Position numbers and translations under genes: made by a program | Assembly: GCF_000243095.1 (NCBI RefSeq) | Contig: NZ_AHJE01000065.1 | Location: 1-64,000, forward strand | DNA length: 64,000 nucleotides | Direction of reading: 5' to 3' | Origin: Cupriavidus basilensis OR16 | GTDB taxonomy: Bacteria > Pseudomonadota > Gammaproteobacteria > Burkholderiales > Burkholderiaceae | Shown: one piece after another, positions 205 to 11,562 of the stretch | How the letters are laid out: every line of letters begins with the position of its first letter | Position numbering within the stretch: position 1 is the first letter of the stretch | Notes under the pieces: generated by a model | Database searches by the model: none | The model's input: only the letters and a program-made list of their open reading frames with translations | What the model was told of the DNA's origin: nothing

Positions 205-663
205 TCAGATCTCCCGCAACTGCTTTGGAAAAACAAAATACTTGAACAATAGGAACAAAATACCTCCCACCACGACAATCGCCACCGCCTGCACCACTTG
301 ATGCGGAAATCTGAGCTTGTCCGAAAAGACATACAACATAAGTATATTCGCGCCATATCCGATAAATTGCGCGATTACGTAACGTAGCAAGACGTATAAC
401 TTTCCGCCCTTATATGAGAACGAATACCGCGCGTGCCCGAAGTAGGCGGTCAAGACGCCAATGGGATACAGCATCGTCACTGCAAGTTTAGGATCGAGCC
501 AAAGCCATGTCACCGCGAGATAGATCACATAGCCCAGAAGATTGTTCAGGACGCCAACAATGCCATAGCGAACTATTTGGGCCAATTGCGGATATACGCC
601 ACTCCTCGCGAGCATCTTAATTACCAACCAAGGCACGTAGTTGCTGTCGATCAATCTTTCCAT
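205..663 (-). CDS. GtrA-family polytopic membrane protein
   Basis: This 152-aa protein is dominated by four hydrophobic segments (about residues 33-52, 60-75, 92-112 and 122-143) with the GtrA signature region RYGIVGVLNN followed by a Tyr/Phe-rich second helix. GtrA-like proteins are thought to move lipid-linked sugars across the inner membrane or to support a GtrB-type glycosyltransferase; a GtrB-like enzyme lies at 6891-7826 in the same cluster. The first ATG overlaps the adenylation gene by 47 bases. A second ATG at 615 lies directly after that gene's stop and would remove 16 residues; neither has a strong ribosome binding site. Confidence 0.75.
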   Translation of the reverse strand: MERLIDSNYVPWLVIKMLARSGVYPQLAQIVRYGIVGVLNNLLGYVIYLAVTWLWLDPKLAVTMLYPIGVLTAYFGHARYSFSYKGGKLYVLLRYVIAQFIGYGANILMLYVFSDKLRFPHQVVQAVAIVVVGGILFLLFKYFVFPKQLREI

Positions 664-2125
664 TCGAGTTCTTCGGCAACTTCGGCATCAGGACAAGTTT
701 GTTCGGCATCATGTAATCCACTCGATCAGAACAGGCGACAAATCCAACAAGCTTTCCGTAAGCGGCGTTGGCGCGATGGTAAATCACGGCGGCCTGGCTT
801 ACGTCGGACAATTTGACCAAGGCATGCTCGATTTCCTCCAATTCGATGCGATAGCCCATGTGCTTGATCTGGTTGTCTTTACGCCCGATAAAATAAAGCT
901 TTCCATCTGTCTCTCGCACTAGGTCGCCGGTACGGTACATGCGCTTCATATAACGCGTGGATTCGGAGAGGGTATGAAAAGCGTCAGTAGTCCGTTGCAG
1001 GTCGTTAAAGTAGCCCGCGGCCACATTGGGACCAATCAAGCATAGTTCCCCACTGACGGCATCGAGATCTTCATCGTTCAGGATACGATAATCAAAATTC
1101 GAATTCAAATGGCCCAGTGACGGTAGACCTTCCATTTCATGAAAATCTTCGTCGGCAAGCGTGTAAGCGCTGCAAATACAAGTACATTCGGTCGGGCCGT
1201 AAACATTGACGAGTTCGGCCTGTCGAGAAAAGATGTCGTAAAGTCTCTTCAATTCGACTTTGGGATATCCCTCGCCGCCGAAGACAATGGTGCGTAACAA
1301 TGGCAGAGCGTCGGCAGTAAGCGCCTTCATAGCCATGAGATAAATCAGCAGGGAGGGCACCGAAAACCAGATGGTGCAAGCCATTTTCCCGACATAGGCC
1401 ACCAAGTCATAAGGACTAGCGAGAATTTCTCTAGGAACAGGACTAAGCGAAGCCCCCGAAAACATTCCGACGAAAAAATCAAAAGCGGAATTATCGAAAT
1501 ACATGGGGCTCAGGTTCGCAAAATTATCCTGATCGGTGATACTGAAACGGTTCTGACCCCAAGAAATGAAATGCAAGACATTCTGATGCGTTACTGCCAC
1601 ACCTTTAGGCACGCCCGTGGATCCTGACGTGAACATGATGTAGGCAATGCACGCACCATCAACCATGCGCGACAGACGCAGTTGCTCCTGACGTTCGGCA
1701 TCCGTGACTTGCGGCAATTGGTCGTCAGCCAACACTAACAGTTGGCAACCCTGGATACTCGCCAATTCCTCCATGGTCGTTTGGTAGTCCGGGGCATCGA
1801 AAAACAGCAGCGACGCGCCACTAACTTGAAGCATGCTGGAAGTGCGTGCCATGGGTGAAGCGACGTCAATGTTCACGTAAGCAATTCCCAGTCGCAGCGC
1901 AGCGAGCATCAGTGCATAGGACAAAGGCCGCTTATTGTGACCAATGGCAATGACGTCACCGCGGCGAAGCCCCTTGGACAAGAGTACCGCCGTTAATTGA
2001 TCAACCCATTGCGCCACCTCCCGATACTCATATTCACGTTCGGGATAGCGCAACGCTGGCCGCTGCGCATGGGTAGCCAGGAGTTCATCAAATAACAGCC
2101 CCAGATTGTAATGGTGGGTAGGCAC
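617..2125 (-). CDS. Stand-alone amino acid (or acyl) adenylation enzyme
   Basis: This is an ANL-superfamily adenylation domain of about 502 residues without condensation, carrier or thioesterase parts. The core motifs are intact: the P-loop-like FTSGSTGVPKG, the NVYGPTE motif, YRTGDLV, the GRKDNQIKHMGYRIE hinge region, and a C-terminal NGKID lysine that catalyses adenylation. Overall it resembles DltA-type enzymes, which load an amino acid onto a separate carrier protein. A 79-aa carrier protein is encoded at 3665-3904, so the pair is probably functional together. The frame is open to 2269, but those codons lie inside the GNAT gene; the GTG at 2125 is the first plausible start after that gene's stop, although it lacks a clear ribosome binding site. 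Substrate cannot be read by eye. Confidence 0.85.
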   Translation of the reverse strand: MPTHHYNLGLLFDELLATHAQRPALRYPEREYEYREVAQWVDQLTAVLLSKGLRRGDVIAIGHNKRPLSYALMLAALRLGIAYVNIDVASPMARTSSMLQVSGASLLFFDAPDYQTTMEELASIQGCQLLVLADDQLPQVTDAERQEQLRLSRMVDGACIAYIMFTSGSTGVPKGVAVTHQNVLHFISWGQNRFSITDQDNFANLSPMYFDNSAFDFFVGMFSGASLSPVPREILASPYDLVAYVGKMACTIWFSVPSLLIYLMAMKALTADALPLLRTIVFGGEGYPKVELKRLYDIFSRQAELVNVYGPTECTCICSAYTLADEDFHEMEGLPSLGHLNSNFDYRILNDEDLDAVSGELCLIGPNVAAGYFNDLQRTTDAFHTLSESTRYMKRMYRTGDLVRETDGKLYFIGRKDNQIKHMGYRIELEEIEHALVKLSDVSQAAVIYHRANAAYGKLVGFVACSDRVDYMMPNKLVLMPKLPKNSNGKIDRQQLRALVGN

Positions 2126-2147
2126 GGCAAAAAGTCCGTTTAAAGAA

Positions 2148-2933
2148 TTATTTGTTGATGGTAAAAAAAGGATAGGCCGCCATGGCCGGGACAAACCCGA
2201 TCGATCGACATAGTGCCATGGAGCCTGAATTATTGGCAAAACAGTCCCACAGCGGTTGTAGGCCTGCATCTCGGCAGTTTTGGTTGAAGAGCATTACGAC
2301 GAATTTACCGAGGCCCAGATGCCGATATTCCGGCAAGGTAAGCACGTCGATTTCAGCACGACCGTCCGCAACAGCCGCAGCATAGCAAATAGCCGCCATC
2401 TCGCCTTTGACAAGCGCCACGGCGGCGTGGGCCTTGGCAATGAAATCATCTGGCGATCGCCAAAATCGACTGACAACACCGAATCGGCGCTCAATCTCCG
2501 CCACATTGGATTGATCCACGTAACCGGCTCTCGTCTCCGTATTTAACACCTGACCGTGAAGACTTTGGAGCGAGCCCCTCTCGGAATCGAAGACGAAGCG
2601 CTGACGGTAAGAGCGCAAGGCATCGGAATCGCCAGAGCGAAGAAAGGCCGGCAGATACGGTGTGTACAGGCGAACCTTTGCGGCGGCAAATTGCTTGTCC
2701 ACTAGCAGATATTGCCGCAATGCGTTTTCGAATTCGGGCGTGGGCGTACCGAAGATCTGAGCGAACCCAAAAGCATGCTCGACATAGACCTGCCTTGGTG
2801 CAACCGCGTGATCGGCGTAAACCACACCGTCTTGCTCGTCGTTCAATACTGAACCAATCAACGGAAAAAATGCCTCGTTGGTTCGATAAAGCGCGAAGGC
2901 TGCACCACCGCTCGCCTTTTGAAGCTTCACCAT
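2148..2933 (-). CDS. GNAT-family acyltransferase
   Basis: The protein has 261 residues. Its C-terminal third holds the acyl-CoA binding motif A of GNAT enzymes (YRHLGLGKF, with the R-x-x-G-x-G pattern) followed by a typical tail with Asn-Asn-Ser and a Gly-Phe turn. The N-terminal half has no motif I recognise. It starts one base after the stop of the downstream-numbered SDR gene (TGACATG), so the two are translationally coupled. In this cluster it could transfer the carrier-bound acyl or aminoacyl group to an amino sugar; that role is inference. The family assignment rests on motif A only. Confidence 0.75.
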   Translation of the reverse strand: MVKLQKASGGAAFALYRTNEAFFPLIGSVLNDEQDGVVYADHAVAPRQVYVEHAFGFAQIFGTPTPEFENALRQYLLVDKQFAAAKVRLYTPYLPAFLRSGDSDALRSYRQRFVFDSERGSLQSLHGQVLNTETRAGYVDQSNVAEIERRFGVVSRFWRSPDDFIAKAHAAVALVKGEMAAICYAAAVADGRAEIDVLTLPEYRHLGLGKFVVMLFNQNCRDAGLQPLWDCFANNSGSMALCRSIGFVPAMAAYPFFTINK

Positions 2934-2934
2934 G

Positions 2935-3675
2935 TCAGATCGTCAGTCCGCCGTTAACATTCAACACTACGCCGGTCATAAAATCATTTTCGATTACAGC
3001 TGCCACTGCTTTGGCCACTTCGTCGACTTCACCCAACCTCCGCAGAGGCGTATTGCTCTGGATATGTTGCAAGGCCGCCTCGCTCAGCGCCTGGCGCGTC
3101 GATTCAGTGCCAATAAAACCGGGCGCTATCGCATTGCAGCGTATCCCCCAACGCCCCAATTCCTTGGACCAGGTGACTGTCATTGCGTTAACGCCCGCTT
3201 TTGCCGCGGAATACGCGGTCTGGCCTTCGTTGCCGCAGGCACTAATGGAGCTGATATTGATAATCGCGCCCTTGGTCCGCCGCAGGACCATTTGTTCAAC
3301 TGCGGCCGAGGTCATGATGAAAACCGAATCGAGATTGACGGTCAATGAATCGCGAAAGCGGCCGTAGTCATGCATGATCCCAGCCGGATTCATGACGTTG
3401 ACAAAGGGTTCACTGAAAATCACGCCGGCGTTATTGACCAGGATATCTATCCTGCCATGTTGCGCGACGATAGCGGCCATTACGGCTTTGGCCTCGTCTG
3501 GGCTTGTCACATCCAAAACCTGTTGCGCCAGATACTCGGGCAGGCTGTTCAGAGCCTTGGCATCCCGATCCGCCACGATTACGGTGGCGCCCCGCTCGTG
3601 CAAATGCATCGCGATGGCCAGCCCTAGCCCCCTGACCCCACCGGTGACTAGTGCAATCGCGCCTTTAATCTGCAA
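2935..3675 (-). CDS. Short-chain dehydrogenase/reductase, FabG-like
   Basis: A complete 246-residue classical SDR. It has the nucleotide-binding TGGVRGLGLA near the N-terminus, the NNAG motif at about residue 87, and the catalytic Ser and Tyr-x-x-x-Lys (YSAAK) at about residues 145-162. The sequence ends with the short NVNGGLTI tail common in FabG-like ketoreductases. It sits between the carrier protein and the GNAT gene, overlapping the carrier-protein gene by 11 bases, which fits reduction of a carrier-bound 3-oxoacyl group, for example to a 3-hydroxyacyl group. A sugar oxidoreductase is the alternative. Confidence 0.8.
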   Translation of the reverse strand: MQIKGAIALVTGGVRGLGLAIAMHLHERGATVIVADRDAKALNSLPEYLAQQVLDVTSPDEAKAVMAAIVAQHGRIDILVNNAGVIFSEPFVNVMNPAGIMHDYGRFRDSLTVNLDSVFIMTSAAVEQMVLRRTKGAIINISSISACGNEGQTAYSAAKAGVNAMTVTWSKELGRWGIRCNAIAPGFIGTESTRQALSEAALQHIQSNTPLRRLGEVDEVAKAVAAVIENDFMTGVVLNVNGGLTI

Positions 3676-3904
3676 GATCTACTCCCTTTTCCTTCAACAC
3701 TTCGATGATATTCGCGACGGAAACCATCCTGATGATGTCAGGAATGACGAGTGATATGTCGTATTCGCTTTCCAGGGACAACACCAAATCCATTTGTTTT
3801 AGGGAGTCCCAAGTGCCGACGTCGGCTTTTGTCAGTTCGGGCCGAATCTCGGACTGCCGCAGTTGGAAGACGCTGGCTAGAATGCCCGTCAGACGCCTAT
3901 TCAT
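3665..3904 (-). CDS. Acyl carrier protein (discrete)
   Basis: A 79-aa acidic helical protein with the phosphopantetheine attachment motif (TWDSLKQMDL; the Ser of DSL is the attachment site). The frame can be extended to a TTG at 3916, but a GGAG sequence lies six bases before the ATG at 3904, which fixes the start there; that ATG follows the stop of the NeuD-like gene by one base. The presence of a private carrier protein beside an adenylation enzyme, a reductase and two acyltransferases is the main reason to think that the cluster makes its own acyl or aminoacyl decoration. Confidence 0.88.
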   Translation of the reverse strand: MNRRLTGILASVFQLRQSEIRPELTKADVGTWDSLKQMDLVLSLESEYDISLVIPDIIRMVSVANIIEVLKEKGVDLAD

Positions 3905-3905
3905 A

Positions 3906-4577
3906 TCAAACTCCAAAATATTTTATATAATCTTCCGACGAATAGCGGATTGGTTCGGCAGACCGCGCTAGATGAACTGCATGCGACTTGGTGTCTTTGG
4001 AAATCAGCGCGCTCGCACCAACGACATTGTATTCGCCCACCGTCACCTCGTTGACCACCGTCGCGTTCACGCCCACAAAGCTGTTGCGTAGTACCTTAGC
4101 CTGGCCGGAAATAACCGTCCCGGATGCAATCCAGCAGTTCTCTGCCACGAGACTGTGGTGCGCCAAGGTAACGTTACACCAGACCATGGTGTTGGCGCCG
4201 AGACGAACACCCGGTTCGATGACGGCGGAGGGAAGTACTACACAGCCTTCGCCCAAAGGGTGCTCGGTGTACACGCAAGCATCTGGATGGACGTATGTTT
4301 CCACGGTGTAGCCCATGCCTTTTAAGCGTAGGAACAACGACTCGCGTACTCGGTTGAGATCGTTGTAACCGATCGCCATCAAGACCCGGCAACTCTCCGG
4401 CGCGAAGGTCTCCTGTAGCTGGGACAATCCGATGGTTGTCAGCCCCTCAAAGCCACCCTGTGCAACGAACTCGTCATCGACGGTGAACCCAACCACCTCA
4501 TATCGGCTATCGCCTCGTAGGTAGGAGTTCAGGATGCTCGCCGTGATCGCGTTGCCCACAAGGACTATTTTCATCAT
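3906..4577 (-). CDS. NeuD/PglD-type sugar O- or N-acyltransferase (left-handed beta-helix)
   Basis: This 223-residue protein has an N-terminal Rossmann-like nucleotide-sugar binding part (MKIVLVGNAITASI) and a C-terminal left-handed beta-helix made of hexapeptide repeats, including GVRLGANTMVW and GVNATVVNEVTVGEYNVVG. This two-domain layout is that of PglD and NeuD, which acetylate UDP-4-amino sugars or sialic acid. The catalytic histidine of PglD-type enzymes may be one of the His-His pair at about residue 141. Its start overlaps the stop of the broken glycosidase-like gene (ATGA), so it belongs to the same operon. Confidence 0.82.
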   Translation of the reverse strand: MMKIVLVGNAITASILNSYLRGDSRYEVVGFTVDDEFVAQGGFEGLTTIGLSQLQETFAPESCRVLMAIGYNDLNRVRESLFLRLKGMGYTVETYVHPDACVYTEHPLGEGCVVLPSAVIEPGVRLGANTMVWCNVTLAHHSLVAENCWIASGTVISGQAKVLRNSFVGVNATVVNEVTVGEYNVVGASALISKDTKSHAVHLARSAEPIRYSSEDYIKYFGV

Positions 4578-5222
4578 GTCGGTATCTCCATAACTGCCAG
4601 CCCGAAACCAGTTTTTCCATAACCGTTTCCGTTGTAAAGCATATACATCAACCCCCGGTGCTCAAAGATATAAGGATAACAAATCATTTCGCTATCCCAA
4701 CCTTCGGCGGAGACATCGATGCCGGAGATCGCATCATTGCGCAGCCAATGGCGGCCGTCCGTTGACGATGCAAAACCGATGCGGTAGGTCTCAATGTCTT
4801 TTGAACTCCCGTGTCAGCGTCAGGTTGTCGGGGTCCAGAATTACGCGTCCCGTATCGCAAATCCAAAGAGTGTCCGGTAGATTTTGCCAACCGACGTAAT
4901 ACAGATATACTTTTCCATTGTGCTCAACAAAACAAACGCTGATCACACCATCGCAATCAAAATACCCCGGTTCACCGTAGCGCAAAGCCAGTTTAGGCTC
5001 GCCCAATAATTTCATGTTTCCCTCGGCCACCGTCGCGTACGAGAGAAATATATGTGAACGCTGATTCGAATCGCGCCGAGTGAATGCGATGACGAAAAGG
5101 TCGTCCTTGTAGTGCACAGCACATGGATGTGAGCCATGGCTGAAATCCGTGCCAGCAGGCTCAAAAATCTGACCCATTTTCATCCAAGGGAAGGGCCTGC
5201 TTTCAGTCACGAAGTGTTTCAT
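4574..5222 (-). pseudogene. Glycosyl hydrolase-43-like protein with its middle deleted
   Basis: The first 115 codons (ATG at 5222) read a five-bladed-propeller-like protein with the motifs KVYLYYVGW and FDCDGVIS. The frame stops at about 4791. Another frame from about 4793 to the TGA at 4574-4576 gives the family's normal C-terminus, with YRIGFASSTDGRHW, GWDSEMICYPYIF and YNGNGYGKTGFGLAV. Full-length relatives, as I recall them, are about 310-320 aa; here roughly 100 codons between the two parts are absent and the frame changes at the join. Both flanks keep their natural overlaps (ATGA with the genes on either side), so the gene was once intact in this operon. Function in the family is unclear. 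Confidence 0.7.
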
Positions 5223-6217
5223 TTGGCATTCTTCTCCGCATCGACAGCGGGCAAGCCACGACGGAGCAACGATTCGATGCACTCAACGCGACTCAGGCCC
5301 AGACGTTCCGCCTCTGCGTAAATATGATCTCGCAGGGTAGGATCCACTCCTTCGAGCTGCCCGAAGTAGCGAGTACGGATGCTACCGCCTCGCATTCCGA
5401 GATGAGGGACGTCGATATTGATGTGAAGCGGCTGGTCGGCGACGGAAAACTCAATGACGTAGAAACAGTTGCTTAGTTCCCAGCTCAATCTGACCGACTT
5501 GGCAGACTCAGGCAGCAGTCCAAGGGGAACCTTGCAAGCGTACAATGGATTGTTCCGAATGAGCATCTTCCCAAACTCGGTGTCACTGAGCCATGGCGCC
5601 AAACCCTCGTCGCCTATCACTACCTTGCCACCGGGTCTGACGACTCGATTCATTTCAGCGATACCTTTGCGGATATCCGGAAAGAGGTTGATGCCGCCAA
5701 AATGATAGGCCGCGTCGAAGTAGCCGTCCTGAAAAGGCAGGTTCGTTGCATCGCTGACGGAAAAGTGCAACTCCAAATCGGAATGGGCCAAATCAGCCTG
5801 ATGGCGCTCCACTCCGGCCAAAAGCATCTGCTGAGCAATGTCCTGAGCGAAGATTTCACCCTGCCCCCCCAGGCTTCTGGCCAGATAAGGGAGATCGTTA
5901 CCGGCACCGGCGCCGGTAACCAGCACTTTGTTTCCCTTATCAAGTTGCAGCCGTGCCACCAGACTCTCTCTAAGGCTGGCTTCATCTGTTTCAAAAGTGG
6001 CAAATACCCATCGTAGCGCGTTATCGTGCACTACCGCGGCGTTCTGTCGCGCGTACTCGTTGGCATCCTCAGGTTCTTTTGCGAAAACGGGTACATTCGT
6101 CCCTGGTGCAAACGCAAAGAAATGTCCGTTGGCACAGGACAATCCTGCAGGACCATGAATTAAACGCGCCCGATTGCATCGGGCTTCGGTACAGCAATAC
6201 ATTGACTGATCAGTCAT
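5219..6217 (-). CDS. Class I SAM-dependent methyltransferase
   Basis: A 332-residue protein with a short Cys-rich N-terminus (a zinc-ribbon-like CCTEARCNRARL and a second Cys near residue 29) followed by a Rossmann methyltransferase fold: motif I VTGAGAGNDLPYLA at about residue 98, an acidic residue after beta-2, DATNLPFQDGYFD at about residue 155 and VVRPGGKVVIGDEG. The C-terminal 100 residues are specific to this subgroup. It overlaps the following gene by four bases. It probably methylates a sugar or lipid intermediate; the acceptor cannot be inferred. Confidence 0.78.
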   Translation of the reverse strand: MTDQSMYCCTEARCNRARLIHGPAGLSCANGHFFAFAPGTNVPVFAKEPEDANEYARQNAAVVHDNALRWVFATFETDEASLRESLVARLQLDKGNKVLVTGAGAGNDLPYLARSLGGQGEIFAQDIAQQMLLAGVERHQADLAHSDLELHFSVSDATNLPFQDGYFDAAYHFGGINLFPDIRKGIAEMNRVVRPGGKVVIGDEGLAPWLSDTEFGKMLIRNNPLYACKVPLGLLPESAKSVRLSWELSNCFYVIEFSVADQPLHINIDVPHLGMRGGSIRTRYFGQLEGVDPTLRDHIYAEAERLGLSRVECIESLLRRGLPAVDAEKNAK

Positions 6218-6220
6218 AAC

Positions 6221-6916
6221 TCAACTCTTTTGGCAAACAACCCAGAACACGCGTTCGGAGACATCGTAGTAGTTGTTATCGGCAAATCCAAACGAGAAAT
6301 TCGAAAAATGAGGTGAAAAATATTTTTCGATTTCCGATTTCTCAGAAAAAGCATGCAGACGGTAACCGTTCCGGTTGCCATACGGGTCGGCATTGATCAT
6401 AAGTGACCCATCTGCCAGTTCCACCGCGTCCTTGAAAATATAAGAGGACTTACATGCAACCGATGCCACGAGATAGCCACCTCTTTTTAATACACGAGCA
6501 TATTCGGCAAGGTTGTCGGCAAAAGATTCACCTTCATCACAATAATAGCAACAATGGCAGGCAAGTATGTAATCAAAATACTCATTGTCGAACGGAATGT
6601 CGCTATTCCTTCCCACTCGCAAGTCCGCAGCGTGCCCTAGCGTCTCCAGCCGCTCACAGGTCTGATCCACAATACCCTGGGTAATCTCGATGCCGCTGAC
6701 AGCAAATCCCTGATCACAGAGGAAAGCCGTGTTTCTGCCGTCGCCGAAGGCAATATCAAGTACGTGATCGCCAGCGGCGGGGCGCCTAAATTTAAGCCCC
6801 GGGTAATTGGCCAGAAACGTGCGCACAACGAATTCGGTGGGATAAACTTTGACACCCTTTTTTTGTGCGTAAAAATGTTCGTAGCTGGTATTAATGTTGT
6901 GAGTTTGATCGCCCAT
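6221..6916 (-). CDS. Class I SAM-dependent methyltransferase (small)
   Basis: A 231-residue methyltransferase with motif I VLDIAFGDGRNTAFL, the post-I region VSGIEITQG, and the NEYFDYILACHCCYYC stretch that includes motif II. The start is placed at the ATG at 6916 because AGGG lies six bases upstream; the frame is open further upstream but would run inside the glycosyltransferase gene. It overlaps the 3' end of that gene by 26 bases. Gene order and strand place it in the polysaccharide cluster; the substrate is unknown. Confidence 0.78.
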   Translation of the reverse strand: MGDQTHNINTSYEHFYAQKKGVKVYPTEFVVRTFLANYPGLKFRRPAAGDHVLDIAFGDGRNTAFLCDQGFAVSGIEITQGIVDQTCERLETLGHAADLRVGRNSDIPFDNEYFDYILACHCCYYCDEGESFADNLAEYARVLKRGGYLVASVACKSSYIFKDAVELADGSLMINADPYGNRNGYRLHAFSEKSEIEKYFSPHFSNFSFGFADNNYYDVSERVFWVVCQKS

Positions 6917-7826
6917 AGACATCCCTGACAATGGTGTGAGGCCGTTGTTTCGTTTCAGAAAAGATCTTTGAAAGATAGATTCCGATAACACCAACGAAAG
7001 AAATGGTCATGCCGCCAAGGACCCAGATGGAGACCATAACCGACGTCCATCCGTCCACGGCCTGAGACAGCAGCAGTCTGTAGAAGACAAGGTGGCCGGC
7101 ATACGCCATTGCACAAACAAATATAATTATTCCCACGTAGAAAATCAGTCTCAGCGGCACCTCGCTAAACGAGGTTATGGCATTCGTTGCATGCCCGATT
7201 TTTTTCGACAGGTTATAAGTTGAGCTACTGGATGCGTGTTTTTTGACGATCTTTTCGCATTGCTTGAAGCCGGCACTCACCCACAAACACGAAATGACTA
7301 GCTCGCGCTCCCTGTATCGCAGCAAAGCGTCTACATAGCGGCGACTCATCAATCTCGCCGTGACGATATTTCTGGGGTGGTCAATAGCACACAACCAATT
7401 AAAGATCGAGTAATATATTTCTCCACTCCATTTTTCAAACCAGTTGCCTTTTCTCTCCTGCTGCCTACCGTAGACCACGTCCGCGCTTTCGGCTAACATC
7501 TTCGCGGAGAACTCAAGCAACCATTCTGGCTCCTCCTCCAAGTCGCTGTCGATAAGAAAAACCCTCTCTCCCAGAGTATGCTCTAGCCCCGCCATCATTG
7601 CCTTGTGATGACCAAAGTTTCGGGAAAGATCGACCACAACGACATGACTATCGCTTCGCGCCAACTCTATGGCGAGGTCAAGACTATTGTCAGGAGACCC
7701 GTCGTTCACGTAAACGATTTCATAATCGTCGCCGACAAGTTGTTTGGCGGCAGCGCTGGCACGTCGGTGGAACTCAGGGATGTGGGGCGTCGATTGATAG
7801 AGAGTGGCAACGATCGAAAGCTTCAT
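6891..7826 (-). CDS. GT2 glycosyltransferase, GtrB/dolichyl-phosphate mannose synthase-like
   Basis: A 311-residue enzyme with a GT-A fold: MKLSIVATLYQS start, VNDGSPDNS (nucleotide-binding Asp), DLSRNFGHHKAMMAG and the metal-binding DSDLEEEP motif. Two transmembrane helices near the C-terminus (about residues 215-240 and 255-280) are typical of enzymes that load a sugar on undecaprenyl phosphate. It would be the natural partner of the GtrA-like protein at 205-663. A GAGG sequence 11 bases upstream supports the ATG at 7826, which overlaps by ATGA the end of an eroded WbqC gene. A 40-codon remnant of a second copy of this gene lies at 10173-10295. Confidence 0.85.
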   Translation of the reverse strand: MKLSIVATLYQSTPHIPEFHRRASAAAKQLVGDDYEIVYVNDGSPDNSLDLAIELARSDSHVVVVDLSRNFGHHKAMMAGLEHTLGERVFLIDSDLEEEPEWLLEFSAKMLAESADVVYGRQQERKGNWFEKWSGEIYYSIFNWLCAIDHPRNIVTARLMSRRYVDALLRYRERELVISCLWVSAGFKQCEKIVKKHASSSSTYNLSKKIGHATNAITSFSEVPLRLIFYVGIIIFVCAMAYAGHLVFYRLLLSQAVDGWTSVMVSIWVLGGMTISFVGVIGIYLSKIFSETKQRPHTIVRDVYGRSNSQH

Positions 7827-8430
7827 GCGCGCACATACCTCATGTAGTGGGGAGCCTCTTTCCCGCAGTTGAAAGCAAGTCGAGGATAGTAACAGTGTGC
7901 GCGAGCTCAACCCAGCGACGGGCATTCCGGATATCGAGGGGAATCAAGCCATGTTAGGTTGATACCGCGCGCCGCAAATACGCTCTCGTAGATGTACTCG
8001 CTGGCTGAAGGATCCGACAAATATTCCGCGCCGCCGGCCTGCGCACAAAGGATGGCGAGACGCTCCGTCTTGCCATCGTGCACGGGGGATCCGAAGAATT
8101 ACTTAGCTTGGTTCCGATGCGGAGGTGACTGCACGCGGCTTCGACGAAGCATCAATTCAATGGCGACAGGTGTGTATAGCTCCCAAAACCCTAGAGTAGC
8201 TCAGGCCACTCAGCAATTGCATCCAAGTGTGGAGCACGACGGTAGTTCTGCACCAATGCTTTCCAATACGCCATCACCCAGCCTGCGCCGTCGATCTCAC
8301 TTTCCCTGATTTTCTGATGATATCTACCCTTCACCGGAACCGGCATCCTCATCCACCGCAATCCTTGCGGGTTTTTATCCGATCGCGGTGCTGGCGGCCT
8401 CGGACAGTCTATTACATGTCGTCGTGCATG
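7823..8430 (-). pseudogene. Eroded WbqC-family gene, copy A
   Basis: Read on the minus strand, pieces of a WbqC-like protein appear in order but in changing frames. Around 8280-8430 they include KGRYHQKIRESEIDGAGW and a QNYRRAPH piece; around 8000-8050 AGGAEYLSDPSASEYIYESV; and around 7830-7990 the C-terminal part with LDLL, KEAPHYM and a final YVRA. The N-terminal 30 or so codons are missing and there are several frameshifts. The last bases form an ATGA overlap with the intact glycosyltransferase. Compared with copy B at 10292-10885 this copy keeps the C-terminus that copy B has lost. Confidence 0.75.
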
Positions 8431-8534
8431 GCAAGCTGTTCGCCGCCTGCTTCAATCCAGGTGTGCTGGCAACATCCTGTAGAAAGTCATTCACGCCAAC
8501 GACCGTTTAAGTACCAAAAGAATGCAACACGACA

Positions 8535-8694
8535 CTAGCAGGCTGCTGAAATACCATTTCGCCCCCCCCGATTGAAGCCTGCCAAGGGAGTGCCCTACCC
8601 CTCGACCGGGCAGAGAAAATCGACCGCGCAGCTTTCTACAAGGTTGTCAACTCTACGCCGAGGTTCGAAAAGCAGTATTTCAGCAGCCTGCTAG
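8535..8694. mobile_element. 160-bp element with perfect 20-bp terminal inverted repeats (MITE-like or IS remnant)
   Basis: Positions 8535-8554 (CTAGCAGGCTGCTGAAATAC) are the exact reverse complement of 8675-8694. The outermost four bases on both sides are CTAG, a palindrome, so they may be a target-site duplication and the true inverted repeat may be 16 bp. Nothing in the 120-base interior looks like an intact gene. The CAGGCTGCTGAAA end resembles termini of several transposons, which is recollection and would need a search. It lies in a gene-free stretch that also holds the eroded WbqC gene. Confidence 0.6.
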
Positions 8695-8988
8695 AGCATA
8701 GACCAGCCGTCGGGAATGCCCGCTGCACCCCCTGAGCCAGCCCGTCAAGCGATTCTATCGGGAAGCGCGAGGCATCGGAGAAGAGCCAAGCCCCGCTTCC
8801 TCAACGTGTTCAAATAGATGTTCTCGTCGTACGGTGTTCCTTTCGGCCAGCAGCGGTACAGGATCCGTGTCTACTTGAATACCAATGCGCTGACGGCAGC
8901 TTGAAATGAGCTGCCTTTGGCTCACAGCCGCGATAACGCCATCTGCTCGAGCGTCACCGGCTATTTTAGGAAGAAGCTCATTCGACGA
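8695..8988. other. Gene-free stretch, no recognisable content
   Basis: Between the inverted-repeat element and the stop of the aminotransferase gene there are about 290 bases with short open frames only. A short plus-strand frame around 8820-8905 (with QRYRIRVYLNTNALTAA) looks coding-like but has no start or partner and matches nothing I recognise. It may be debris of a transposase or of another polysaccharide gene. Confidence 0.4.
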
Positions 8989-10143
8989 TCACTCCCCTTT
9001 TGTTGCTCGCGTTGCGTTGGCTAGTACGTCCACGACCCGATCCTGCTGCGCCCTCGTCAACCCGACCCAGAGCGGTAGACGAATCAGGCGCTCGGATTGC
9101 CGGTCAGTTATATCAAGCGACCCACATGTACGGCCGTAGCGTTGCCCCGCTGGCGAAGAGTGCAGCGGAACGTAGTGAAAAACTGAGGAAATTTGATTGC
9201 GCTTTAACTCGCTTAACACTGCCTGTCGATCGATCTCGGGGGATAGCAGCACGTAATACATATGCGCGTTGTGCTGGCAGTCCTCGGGTATGATCGGACG
9301 ACGTAGCGCACCCTTCGATTCAAGTTCAGCAAGTGCCGCGTGGTAGTACTCCCAACTGGACATGCGTTGATCCGTGATTGCCTGCGCATCCTCGAGCTGA
9401 GCCCAAAGGAACGCTGCAATGAGTTCGCCGGGCAGGAAGGACGAACCCACTTCCTGCCATGTATATTTGTCGACTTCGCCGCGAAAGAAGCGGCTCCGGT
9501 CAGTGCCTTTTTCTCGAACGATCTCAGCACGTCGAGCGAGTTCCGGGTCGTTGACAAGCAACGCGCCGCCTTCACCAGAAATTACATTCTTGGTCTCGTG
9601 AAAGCTAAACGCCCCTAGGTCCCCAATACTCCCTAGCGCTCGCCCTTTGTATCCAGCCATGACGCCTTGTGCGGCATCTTCGACCACCTTCAGCCCATGA
9701 AGCCCGGCGATATCCATTATGTCGTCCATTGCGCAGGCCACGCCCGCGTAGTGCACCGGCACAATCGCTTTGGTGCGGGGCGTAATCGCCGCTTCGATTA
9801 GCCGCTCGTCCAAATTCAACGTATCTTTTCGAATATCTACAAACACCGGCACACCGCCGCGCAACACGAACGCGTTAGCCGTGGAAACGAAGGTGTAGGA
9901 GGGCATGATCACTTCATCTCCCGGCTGGATGTCCAGCAACAACGCAGTCATTTCCAACGCCGCTGTGCAGGAATGAGTAAGCAGAGCTTTTGAGCAGCCG
10001 ACATTCTCTTCGAGCCAAGTATGGCAAAGTTTCGTGAACGGGCCATCGCCAGCTAACATGTTGCCGAACTTAGCCTCGGCGATGTAATAAAGCTCCTTAC
10101 CAGTCATGTAAGGCCGATTGAACTGGATTTTCTCATTGCTCAC
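8989..10143 (-). CDS. DegT/DnrJ/EryC1-family sugar aminotransferase, dTDP-4-amino-4,6-dideoxyhexose type
   Basis: A 384-residue PLP-dependent aminotransferase. The N-terminus (IQFNRPYMTGKELYYIAEA) and GDGPFT motif are typical of WecE/FdtB-like enzymes that aminate dTDP-4-keto-6-deoxyglucose. The PLP lysine is in SFHETKNVISGEGGAL at about residue 185, and the PLP phosphate-binding THSCTAALEM is at about residue 55. The start is the GTG at 10143, seven bases after GGTGGAG. The neighbouring rfbB would supply its substrate. Which of Qui4N or Fuc4N is made cannot be told from the sequence alone. Confidence 0.85.
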   Translation of the reverse strand: MSNEKIQFNRPYMTGKELYYIAEAKFGNMLAGDGPFTKLCHTWLEENVGCSKALLTHSCTAALEMTALLLDIQPGDEVIMPSYTFVSTANAFVLRGGVPVFVDIRKDTLNLDERLIEAAITPRTKAIVPVHYAGVACAMDDIMDIAGLHGLKVVEDAAQGVMAGYKGRALGSIGDLGAFSFHETKNVISGEGGALLVNDPELARRAEIVREKGTDRSRFFRGEVDKYTWQEVGSSFLPGELIAAFLWAQLEDAQAITDQRMSSWEYYHAALAELESKGALRRPIIPEDCQHNAHMYYVLLSPEIDRQAVLSELKRNQISSVFHYVPLHSSPAGQRYGRTCGSLDITDRQSERLIRLPLWVGLTRAQQDRVVDVLANATRATKGE

Positions 10144-10172
10144 TTCAAATCTCCACCGCAGACGCGAATACA

Positions 10173-10295
10173 TTACAAGGATTGGAAAGAATGGCTCTCA
10201 CCCGCTACCTGCTGGGCGAACGTACTCGTGCGCCGACGAAATTCTGATATATAGGCCGCCGACTGACAGGGCATCGCAACGATAGAAAGCCTCAT
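10173..10295 (-). pseudogene. 40-codon remnant of a second GT2 gene (copy B)
   Basis: An ATG at 10295, overlapping the WbqC stop by ATGA exactly as in copy A, opens a 40-codon frame beginning [20 protein letters not shown]. It is clearly homologous to the first 35 codons of the glycosyltransferase at 6891-7826 (MKLSIVATLYQSTPHIPEFH) and then ends in unrelated sequence and a TAA at 10173-10175. Downstream comes directly the aminotransferase start. It is the left-over 5' end of a duplicated module. Confidence 0.8.
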
Positions 10296-10885
10296 GTGCG
10301 AACATGCCTATAATCAAACCAGGTGAGTTTTATGTCCCGCTGGGCGAACACACTTTCTTCAATGTAGTCCTTGGCAGACGGCCCGGAGATGTACTCGCTG
10401 CCGCCGGCCTCAGCACAGAGATTCGCGAGACGTTCAGTTTTTCCCTCTTCTAGCGTGTAGTCCCAAGAATTCGAGATGACGGTTTCGATGTTCAGGTACC
10501 GGCAGATGGCCTCGATAAACCGGCGATTCAACTGGGAGAGCTGCGCATAGGATTCCCCGATATATAGAGGTTCGAGCCACGTTGCAATTTCGTGGAAATA
10601 GGGGGCGCGGCGATAATTCTGAGTGAATGCTCTCCAGTGATCCGAGGCCCATTGGGAACCGTCAATCTCCGTTTCCCTGATCTTCTGATGATATTTTCCC
10701 TTTACGTGCACTGGGACCGTGAGCCACTGCACCCCCTGTGCTGTCTTAATCTGGTTGCGATTGCGCCAATCTCGCCGCGTGTATTGCATGTCATCGTAGA
10801 GTATGAATTCGTCCACGGCGGAGATCATGTCGAAGTACCCTTTCCACGGGATGTAGTTAGACTGAACGATGGCGACTTTTTTCAT
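10292..10885 (-). CDS. WbqC-family protein, copy B, C-terminally shortened
   Basis: A 197-residue WbqC-like protein starting [19 protein letters not shown], with the family stretch [15 protein letters not shown] and [16 protein letters not shown]. WbqC-like proteins occur in O-antigen loci; their biochemical role is not established to my knowledge. The end is abnormal: after TWFDY the sequence jumps to RHVRT and stops, while copy A and relatives continue with a Pro-Glu-x-Pro segment and LDLLFN before a similar end. About 35 codons are therefore deleted. The ATG at 10885 overlaps the stop of the truncated rfbB (TAATG). Activity of the shortened protein is doubtful. Confidence 0.75.
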
Positions 10886-11562
10886 TATTTCGGCGTCCCT
10901 CGGACTGTGCACGCAGCGGTGGCTACGTTGGTTAGCGCGTTGGCAATCAATAGCGAAATCAATTTTTCCGGAAACTGATAGGGTTCGTAATTATCGGAAC
11001 AATGGGTAGTCAAGACCGGCAGGCTGTGTGCGTGATGGTAAGCGCGCACCAGATGGTCCGATGCAGCCTTCGATGCGGAATACGGGCTGTTCGGGGCATA
11101 TGGCGTGTTTTCCGAGAACGGCGTACCTATCGGCTCAAGTGACCCGAATACCTCATCGGTTGAAATATGGAGAAAGCGGAATCGATCGCGCTCTGCGACC
11201 GGCATTGTGGTCCAATAGGTACGCGTTGCTTCCAGCAGGCTGAACGCCCCCCCGATATTGGTCTGGATGAAATCATCCGGCGCGTGTATGGAGCGGTCAA
11301 CATGCCTTTCGGCAGCAAAGTGAACCACTGCGTGAGGGCGGAACTCCGCAAACAACTGATCCAGCCGTGCCTGATCACATATGTCCGAGCGCGAGAAGAT
11401 GTGGCGCGCGTCATCGTAAAGTGACGCCAAGCTCATCAGATTGCCTGCGTAGGTCAACTTATCCAAGTTAGCGATGGCATCAGCCTTGTCGGCGTGCAGC
11501 CAATCCAGGACAAAGTTAGCACCAATAAAGCCAGCCCCACCCGTAACAAAAATATGCGACAA
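10885..11562 (-). pseudogene. rfbB: dTDP-glucose 4,6-dehydratase, 3'-truncated
   Basis: The first 210 residues are a normal RfbB: TGGAGFIGANFV nucleotide-binding motif, HFAAERHVDRSI, the HISTDEVFG catalytic region and YSASKAASD with the Tyr-x-x-x-Lys pair. After [20 protein letters not shown] the frame continues with 15 unrelated residues to a TAA, so about 130-140 residues of the substrate-binding domain are missing compared with the usual 350. The start is a TTG at 11562; a TAA lies in frame five codons upstream. The enzyme would convert dTDP-glucose to dTDP-4-keto-6-deoxyglucose for the aminotransferase at 8989-10143, but this copy is probably inactive. Confidence 0.8.

What the first reader, a model, noticed from the sequence alone, without database searches (positions are those of the whole stretch)
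617..6217. Carrier-protein-based acyl or aminoacyl decoration module inside a polysaccharide cluster
A free-standing DltA-like adenylation enzyme, a dedicated carrier protein, an FabG-like reductase, a GNAT enzyme and a NeuD-type acyltransferase are packed with overlaps or gaps of 1-4 bases in most cases, within a cluster that also makes a dTDP-amino sugar (aminotransferase and rfbB). Seen: motifs and gene packing. Known: adenylation plus a discrete carrier loads amino or hydroxy acids. Inference: the loaded group is modified by the reductase and moved by the GNAT or NeuD-like enzyme to a 4-amino sugar. I know no characterised set with this exact composition, so the glycan group may be new.
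Basis: partly seen in the sequence, partly recalled or inferred. Interest (0 to 1): 0.72.

Follow-up and report, generated by a model that had tools for sequence, protein, structure and literature searches.

The report
Carrier-protein cassette that decorates surface sugars
A cluster of genes in this bacterium looks like a mobile kit that activates a small (probably amino) acid on a carrier protein and attaches it to an unusual surface sugar; the same kit recurs in scattered, distantly related bacteria, while this particular copy is partly broken.

Summary
The five genes are real and tightly packed. They belong to a larger set that recurs in 19 of 24 other loci of this adenylation-enzyme family and in 0 of 56 other adenylation-domain loci, from Variovorax and Neorhizobium to Bacteroidota and Lachnospiraceae. 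The substrate pocket keeps the amino-acid aspartate and is nearly invariant. A formyltransferase takes the GNAT's place in three loci, suggesting that an amine is capped. Two rhizobial loci carry a similar cluster without carrier, SDR, GNAT and adenylation enzyme. The closest characterised system is the Pseudomonas syringae viosamine island, with a ketosynthase in place of the adenylation enzyme. The window copy is partly broken: rfbB, both WbqC copies, the GH43-like gene, and 14 residues of the adenylation enzyme. New variant of a known kind.

The parts
205..615 (-). GtrA-type membrane protein (PF04138), probably flips the polyprenyl-phosphate sugar
   Evidence: same place after the adenylation gene in L018, L019, L021
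617..2125 (-). Stand-alone amino-acid-type adenylation enzyme; pocket D-N-F-S-V-G-V-C-I-K; lacks 14 residues of the C-terminal subdomain
2148..2933 (-). GNAT acetyltransferase PF12746, proposed amine-capping enzyme
   Evidence: place shared with a formyltransferase in L019, L020, L038
2935..3675 (-). FabG-like SDR, Ser-Tyr-Lys intact, Asp at the end of beta-2 (NAD type, by recalled rule)
3665..3904 (-). Discrete carrier protein, 79 aa, WDSL phosphopantetheine site
3906..4577 (-). NeuD/PglB/VioB-type left-handed beta-helix N-acyltransferase, His-His at the catalytic place (recalled)
4577..5221 (-). Broken GH43/GH130-like gene (large internal deletion and frameshift; limits approximate)
   Evidence: intact relative L018:5594-6538, weak PF04616/PF04041 match below cut-off
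5219..6217 (-). SAM methyltransferase MT1
   Evidence: in 14 of 20 module loci
6221..6916 (-). SAM methyltransferase MT2
6891..7826 (-). GT2 glycosyltransferase, PgfS/ArnC-like, probably loads polyprenyl phosphate
7830..8410 (-). Second WbqC copy, degenerate (stops and frameshifts; limits approximate)
8989..10173 (-). DegT-family aminotransferase, 81% to a protein annotated RffA, proposed to make the dTDP-4-amino-4,6-dideoxyhexose
10180..10295 (-). Remnant of the GT2 start, mark of a WbqC-GT2 duplication (read by eye; limits approximate)
10292..10885 (-). WbqC (PF08889), shortened at its C-terminus; proposed BshC-like amino-acid:amino-sugar ligase
10885..11562 (-). Truncated rmlB/rfbB, next to apaH as in the genus

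Best explanation
The cluster makes a decorated dTDP-4-amino-4,6-dideoxyhexose for a surface glycan. Shown by sequence: the gene set, its recurrence as a unit, its variable capping enzyme and the damage to this copy. Inferred steps: (1) the aminotransferase makes the 4-amino sugar; (2) the adenylation enzyme activates one particular small amino acid and loads it on the carrier; (3) the SDR makes a redox change on that unit, before or after transfer; (4) the GNAT, or a formyltransferase in other loci, caps its amine; (5) the NeuD-type enzyme moves the group from the carrier to an amine of the sugar, as VioB probably does in P. syringae; (6) WbqC, a BshC-like ligase, separately joins an amino acid to the sugar amine; (7) GT2 and GtrA pass the sugar to and across the membrane on polyprenyl phosphate. 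The carrier, SDR, capping and adenylation genes form a cassette that can be present or absent in an otherwise similar cluster. In this genome the copy is horizontally acquired and partly decayed.
Against: No substrate is shown; the pocket reading rests on recalled numbering and names no certain amino acid. The SDR is unexplained if the substrate is a plain amino acid. No capping enzyme of the three families was found in 6 of 20 module loci (L025, L028, L029, L031, L033, L041), L033 being a 6 kb contig. NeuD of a cassette-bearing locus, L034, is nearer (45-50%) to the cassette-free NeuDs than the other cassette NeuDs compared are (24-34%), and the GH43-like protein drops too (33-42%), though it varies as much among cassette loci (L019-L021 40%). 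WbqC-BshC: Foldseek gave no match at E 1e-3 and profile comparison none (E 0.26). All 19 PIG-L cases come from one family, f72. WbqC and the cassette both claim the sugar amine; their order is a guess. The window copy carries lesions in four kinds of gene.
Confidence: 0.45

Rival explanations
1. Acyl, not aminoacyl: the adenylation enzyme loads a 3-oxo or 3-hydroxy acid such as acetoacetate, the SDR reduces it, and NeuD moves the acyl group, much as VioS, VioR, the carrier and VioB work in P. syringae with a ketosynthase; GNAT or formyltransferase acts on some other amine.
For: SDR is FabG-like (200 bits to TIGR01830, below its cut-off of 298) and in 20 of 20 module loci; the viosamine island has reductase, carrier and VioB and makes N-(3-hydroxy-1-oxobutyl) viosamine.
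Against: Asp235 of amino-acid adenylation domains is kept in 26 of 26; best family models are amino-acid adenylation and DltA; the SDR has an NAD-type Asp, which fits oxidation as well as reduction.
Confidence: 0.25
2. Carrier-bound amino acid only: the cassette alone aminoacylates the 4-amine and WbqC does something else, for example acts on another amine of the glycan.
For: Two module loci, L031 and L034, show no WbqC within the fetched flanks; WbqC occurs far more widely than the cassette (79 of 299 Pseudomonadota genomes).
Against: WbqC is in 18 of 20 module loci, in cassette-free clusters with a 4-aminotransferase, and beside the aminotransferase in O121.
Confidence: 0.2
3. A dead island: in this genome the pathway no longer works and the glycan lacks the group. 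This can be true together with any of the other readings.
For: Truncated rfbB, broken GH43-like gene and second WbqC, shortened first WbqC, 42-base loss in the adenylation gene.
Against: Carrier, SDR, GNAT, NeuD, both methyltransferases, GT2, aminotransferase and GtrA match their relatives over most of their length; an rmlB with a 383-aa open frame exists elsewhere; the model of the shortened adenylation enzyme keeps its fold, with the C-terminal part at pLDDT 66-88.
Confidence: 0.5
4. A small non-ribosomal peptide-like metabolite unrelated to glycan.
For: Adenylation enzyme, carrier and formylation recall linear gramicidin synthetase.
Against: No condensation domain among the annotated cluster genes; partners are sugar enzymes and glycosyltransferase; the site is apaH-rmlB, found side by side in 11 of 12 same-genus loci.
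Confidence: 0.03

Closest known systems
Pseudomonas syringae viosamine island (vioA, vioB, vioR, vioS, acp, vioM, vioT)
   Same: Sugar 4-aminotransferase, VioB transferase, FabG-type reductase, discrete carrier and methyltransferase for an N-acylated 4-amino-4,6-dideoxyhexose (PMC3927599, abstract and passages)
   Different: Starter is a ketosynthase III; here an adenylation enzyme plus GNAT or formyltransferase, WbqC and a GH43-like protein. The paper names VioB an acetyltransferase and its putative pathway has dTDP-N-acetoacetylviosamine, so reduction may follow transfer there
Dlt system (DltA and its carrier)
   Same: Stand-alone adenylation enzyme with a discrete carrier; DltA models score 272-283 bits
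   Different: Far below the DltA cut-offs (476 and 560); no DltB or DltD among the annotated cluster genes; lies in a sugar-nucleotide cluster
E. coli O121 O-antigen aminotransferase-WbqC-GNAT
   Same: Aminotransferase beside WbqC and a GNAT; glycan has N-acetylglycyl on Qui4N
   Different: No match to the adenylation enzyme, carrier or FabG-like SDR in the fetched 23 kb
Bacillithiol BshB/BshC
   Same: WbqC model aligns with BshC; PIG-L deacetylase (superfamily of BshB, recalled) beside WbqC in one family; BshC is the putative Cys ligase on an amino sugar (PMC4360819, passages)
   Different: No sequence-profile match; WbqC (228 aa in the model) is under half the length of BshC (540 in the chain)
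Linear gramicidin synthetase A
   Same: Formylation domain, adenylation and carrier working on a carrier-bound amino acid (function recalled; matches)
   Different: Modular megasynthase making a peptide

Membership tests
Carrier-based sugar N-acylation of viosamine-island type | sugar 4-aminotransferase with VioB/NeuD-type transferase | tested here: met
   (NeuD_NnaD model 145 bits, under its cut-off of 161)
Carrier-based sugar N-acylation of viosamine-island type | discrete carrier with intact Ser site and FabG-like reductase | tested here: met
Carrier-based sugar N-acylation of viosamine-island type | ketosynthase III (VioS) as starter | tested here: not met
   no ketosynthase among the window's annotated cluster genes
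DltA | score over the curated DltA cut-off | tested here: not met
   283 of 476 and 272 of 560 bits
DltA | D-alanine specificity | not testable with these tools
   no assay; pocket residues only
Amino-acid adenylation enzymes | Asp235 and catalytic Lys | tested here: met
   26 of 26 (numbering recalled)
Amino-acid adenylation enzymes | complete C-terminal subdomain in the window copy | tested here: not met
   14 residues missing, present in 25 of 25 others
BshC (for WbqC) | sequence-profile homology | tested here: not met
   hhalign E 0.26, Prob 0.2
BshC (for WbqC) | same fold over most of the WbqC protein | tested here: met
BshC (for WbqC) | amino-acid:amino-sugar ligase activity | not testable with these tools
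   context only

The most novel reading that the evidence does not exclude
WbqC is a BshC-like ligase that puts a first amino acid on the 4-amine of the sugar, and the carrier cassette adds a second, N-formyl- or N-acetyl-capped aminoacyl unit on top, giving peptidyl-decorated 4-amino sugars built by two unrelated chemistries in one cluster.
Probability: 0.2. Interest if true: 0.75.

Novelty: new variant of a known kind. Interest (0 to 1): 0.55.

Why it matters
N-acylaminoacyl groups on 4-amino sugars are known from glycan structures (references of 1992 and 1997), but the searches of the held library (listings) showed no paper that assigns their biosynthesis to an adenylation-and-carrier route, and the papers that mention WbqC call it uncharacterised or give it no shown function; most subscription papers are not held. 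If right, the cluster gives a gene signature for such glycans across phyla, and the WbqC reading makes a common family (79 of 299 Pseudomonadota genomes) directly testable.

Tried and rejected
A DltA reading: scores far below cut-off. The window as contaminant: pyrC beside the island is single-copy and 92% to a same-genus genome, so the contig belongs to the genus although the assembly has 5.1% contamination. Plasmid-borne copies of the adenylation enzyme: none at 1e-60. Prevalence: with the window enzyme 3 of 398 Pseudomonadota genomes at 1e-70 (G000, G121, G209); G121 and G209 lack the partner set, though G121 has a carrier of its own. With other seeds only the seed itself, 1 of 345 Bacteroidota and 1 of 249 Campylobacterota at 1e-80. 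These searches use strict E-values and score only a few candidates per genome. A solved relative of WbqC by sequence: none at E 1. A C. jejuni flagellar parallel (Cj1307 and neighbours) was recalled; passages of the one paper opened mention N-acetylglutamine-substituted pseudaminic acid but not those genes. Model of the shortened adenylation enzyme: fold kept, C-terminal part less certain, not decisive. The pocket reading used wrong columns for positions 299 and 301 and was replaced. The 24 family loci and 56 controls are one list ranked by the search; I drew the line at L041/L042 after seeing the neighbours, and identities overlap there (L041 33%, L042 34%, L049 36%), so the 19 of 24 and 0 of 56 are descriptive, not a blind test. 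L032 is the same contig as L016 and was left out of the 26 sequences. Fifteen of the 19 module loci are metagenome-assembled (record titles). Of the 12 papers the five on bacteria or archaea were searched for passages; the other seven are off topic by title and were not opened.
Full report
Observation. The window's first 12 kb, on the minus strand, hold a polysaccharide-type cluster that stops at apaH. The five named genes are present with the stated packing, except a 22-base gap before the adenylation gene, whose likely start is a GTG at 2125. Family models agree: amino-acid adenylation (311 bits, cut-off 317), PF12746 GNAT (67.9, cut-off 26), FabG-like SDR, PP-binding carrier (21.5, cut-off 20.8) and NeuD/PglB/VioB (145, cut-off 161). 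The next genes are two methyltransferases, a PgfS/ArnC-like GT2, a DegT aminotransferase 81% like one annotated RffA and WbqC.

State of this copy. DNA alignments to Variovorax (L018), Thiocapsa (L019) and Neorhizobium (L021) show that the GH43-like gene lost a large internal stretch and changed frame, a second WbqC copy is riddled with stops and frameshifts, and the first WbqC lost its C-terminus and is followed by a remnant of the GT2 start. rfbB is cut at 225 residues. The adenylation enzyme alone of 26 lacks 14 residues before the conserved YMxP. So this copy passed through duplication and recombination and is at least partly decayed; whether reads would confirm each lesion cannot be told here. 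GC falls to 0.50-0.56 against 0.66-0.72 beyond. rmlB lies next to apaH in 11 of 12 same-genus loci, the twelfth (L099) being too short to tell; by recall this is a usual O-antigen site in Burkholderiales.

Recurrence. In L018-L041, 19 of 24 loci carry at least four of carrier, SDR, NeuD, WbqC, GH43-like and aminotransferase; 0 of 56 of L042-L097 do. Single partners there are rare: SDR 4 of 56, NeuD 1 of 56, the other four 0 of 56. The line between the two groups was drawn after seeing the neighbours. The five L018-L041 loci without the module are L032, L036, L037, L039 and L040. Counting the window as the twentieth module locus: adenylation and NeuD 20 of 20, SDR 20 of 20 (L025), carrier 20 of 20 (19, one of them, L033, with its site masked; L041 by eye), WbqC 18 of 20, aminotransferase 18 of 20, MT1 14 of 20, GH43-like 17 of 19 outside the window. 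Taxa by record title include Variovorax, Thiocapsa, Neorhizobium and Niastella (isolates) and, as assembled from metagenomes, Desulfovibrionaceae, Thiobacillus, Ignavibacteriae, Lachnospiraceae, Acidobacteria, Sulfurimonas and Pelagibacteraceae. The spread together with rarity in samples points to horizontal transfer.

What it activates. The pocket residues, by recalled GrsA numbering, are DNFSxGVCIK in 22 of 26, DNYSVGVCMK in L031, and DNFAMGCCIK in L017, L036 and L040, which lack the module. Asp235 is kept in 26 of 26; in this enzyme class it binds the amino group (recalled). Which amino acid is not told; a small or aliphatic one with polar neighbours (Asn236, Ser278) is a guess.

Capping place. 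Between SDR and adenylation gene, window, L018 and L021 have the PF12746-type GNAT; L019, L020 and L038 have a formyltransferase; L030 has both after its SDR. Pfam was run on the window GNAT, the L038 formyltransferase and the L026 GNAT; the rest are assigned by similarity. Of 20 module loci eight have the PF12746-type GNAT, four the formyltransferase, four a PF13302-type GNAT (L030 counted in all three), and six none of these within the fetched stretch. Exchange of acetyl for formyl transfer is what an exposed amine would need. The formyltransferase of L038 is nearest in the PDB to VioF and also matches methionyl-tRNA formyltransferases and the gramicidin formylation domain, so the amine could be that of the sugar or of a carrier-bound amino acid.

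Natural absence. Rhizobium sp. Q54 (L129) and Peteryoungia desertarenae (L128) carry WbqC, GT2, methyltransferase, NeuD-type and GH43-like genes, with no match to carrier, SDR, GNAT or adenylation genes in the 28.7 kb read; Q54 also has rfbB and a dTDP-4-amino-4,6-dideoxygalactose transaminase. WbqC (60-71%) and GT2 (59-62%) stay close to window, L018, L019 and L021, while NeuD drops to 29-32%, as if the transferase changed with the donor. Against this, L034, a cassette locus, has a NeuD 45-50% like the cassette-free ones, and the GH43-like protein is low as well (33-42%), though it differs as much between cassette loci L019 and L021 (40%). Neorhizobium galegae (L126) has WbqC, GT2, rfbA and rffA without the cassette.

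Comparison with the known. The P. syringae viosamine island has aminotransferase, VioB, reductase VioR, carrier, methyltransferase and ketosynthase VioS, and its glycan ends in N-(3-hydroxy-1-oxobutyl)-2-O-methyl viosamine; loss of vioR removes the modified sugar (PMC3927599, abstract and passages). The set here has an adenylation enzyme with a capping enzyme where VioS would be. Known glycans carry N-acetyl-D-alanyl, N-acetylglycyl and N-[(R)-3-hydroxybutyryl]-L-alanyl on Qui4N, so the predicted kind of group has precedents. Library searches on carrier, adenylation and glycan terms showed no such gene set (listings only).

Noticed in passing
window 8535-8694: Perfect 20-base inverted repeats 120 bases apart, like a small mobile element between the aminotransferase and the broken WbqC; a 19-base exact search of the genome finds only these two arms.
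   Followed up: partly
G000:C345 (L013): The genome has a second apaH beside an rmlB with a 383-aa open frame on another contig; apaH 74% and rmlB 70% to the window's.
   Followed up: partly
19 of L131-L160, WbqC loci of one unnamed Pseudomonadota family (f72): WbqC directly beside a PIG-L deacetylase (superfamily of BshB, recalled) and near a DegT aminotransferase, echoing BshB/BshC.
   Followed up: partly
L134, L136: WbqC close to an asparagine-synthase-type protein in two loci.
   Followed up: no
L016 (G121) 6554-9063: A relative of the adenylation enzyme (42-45%) next to an AAC(3)-like acyltransferase (PF02522) and a carrier-like ORF, without the other partners: perhaps a second kind of carrier-based cassette.
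   Followed up: no
L017, L036, L040: These loci (two titled Bradyrhizobium, one unnamed) share a related adenylation enzyme with another pocket (DNFAMGCCIK) and another conserved neighbourhood.
   Followed up: no
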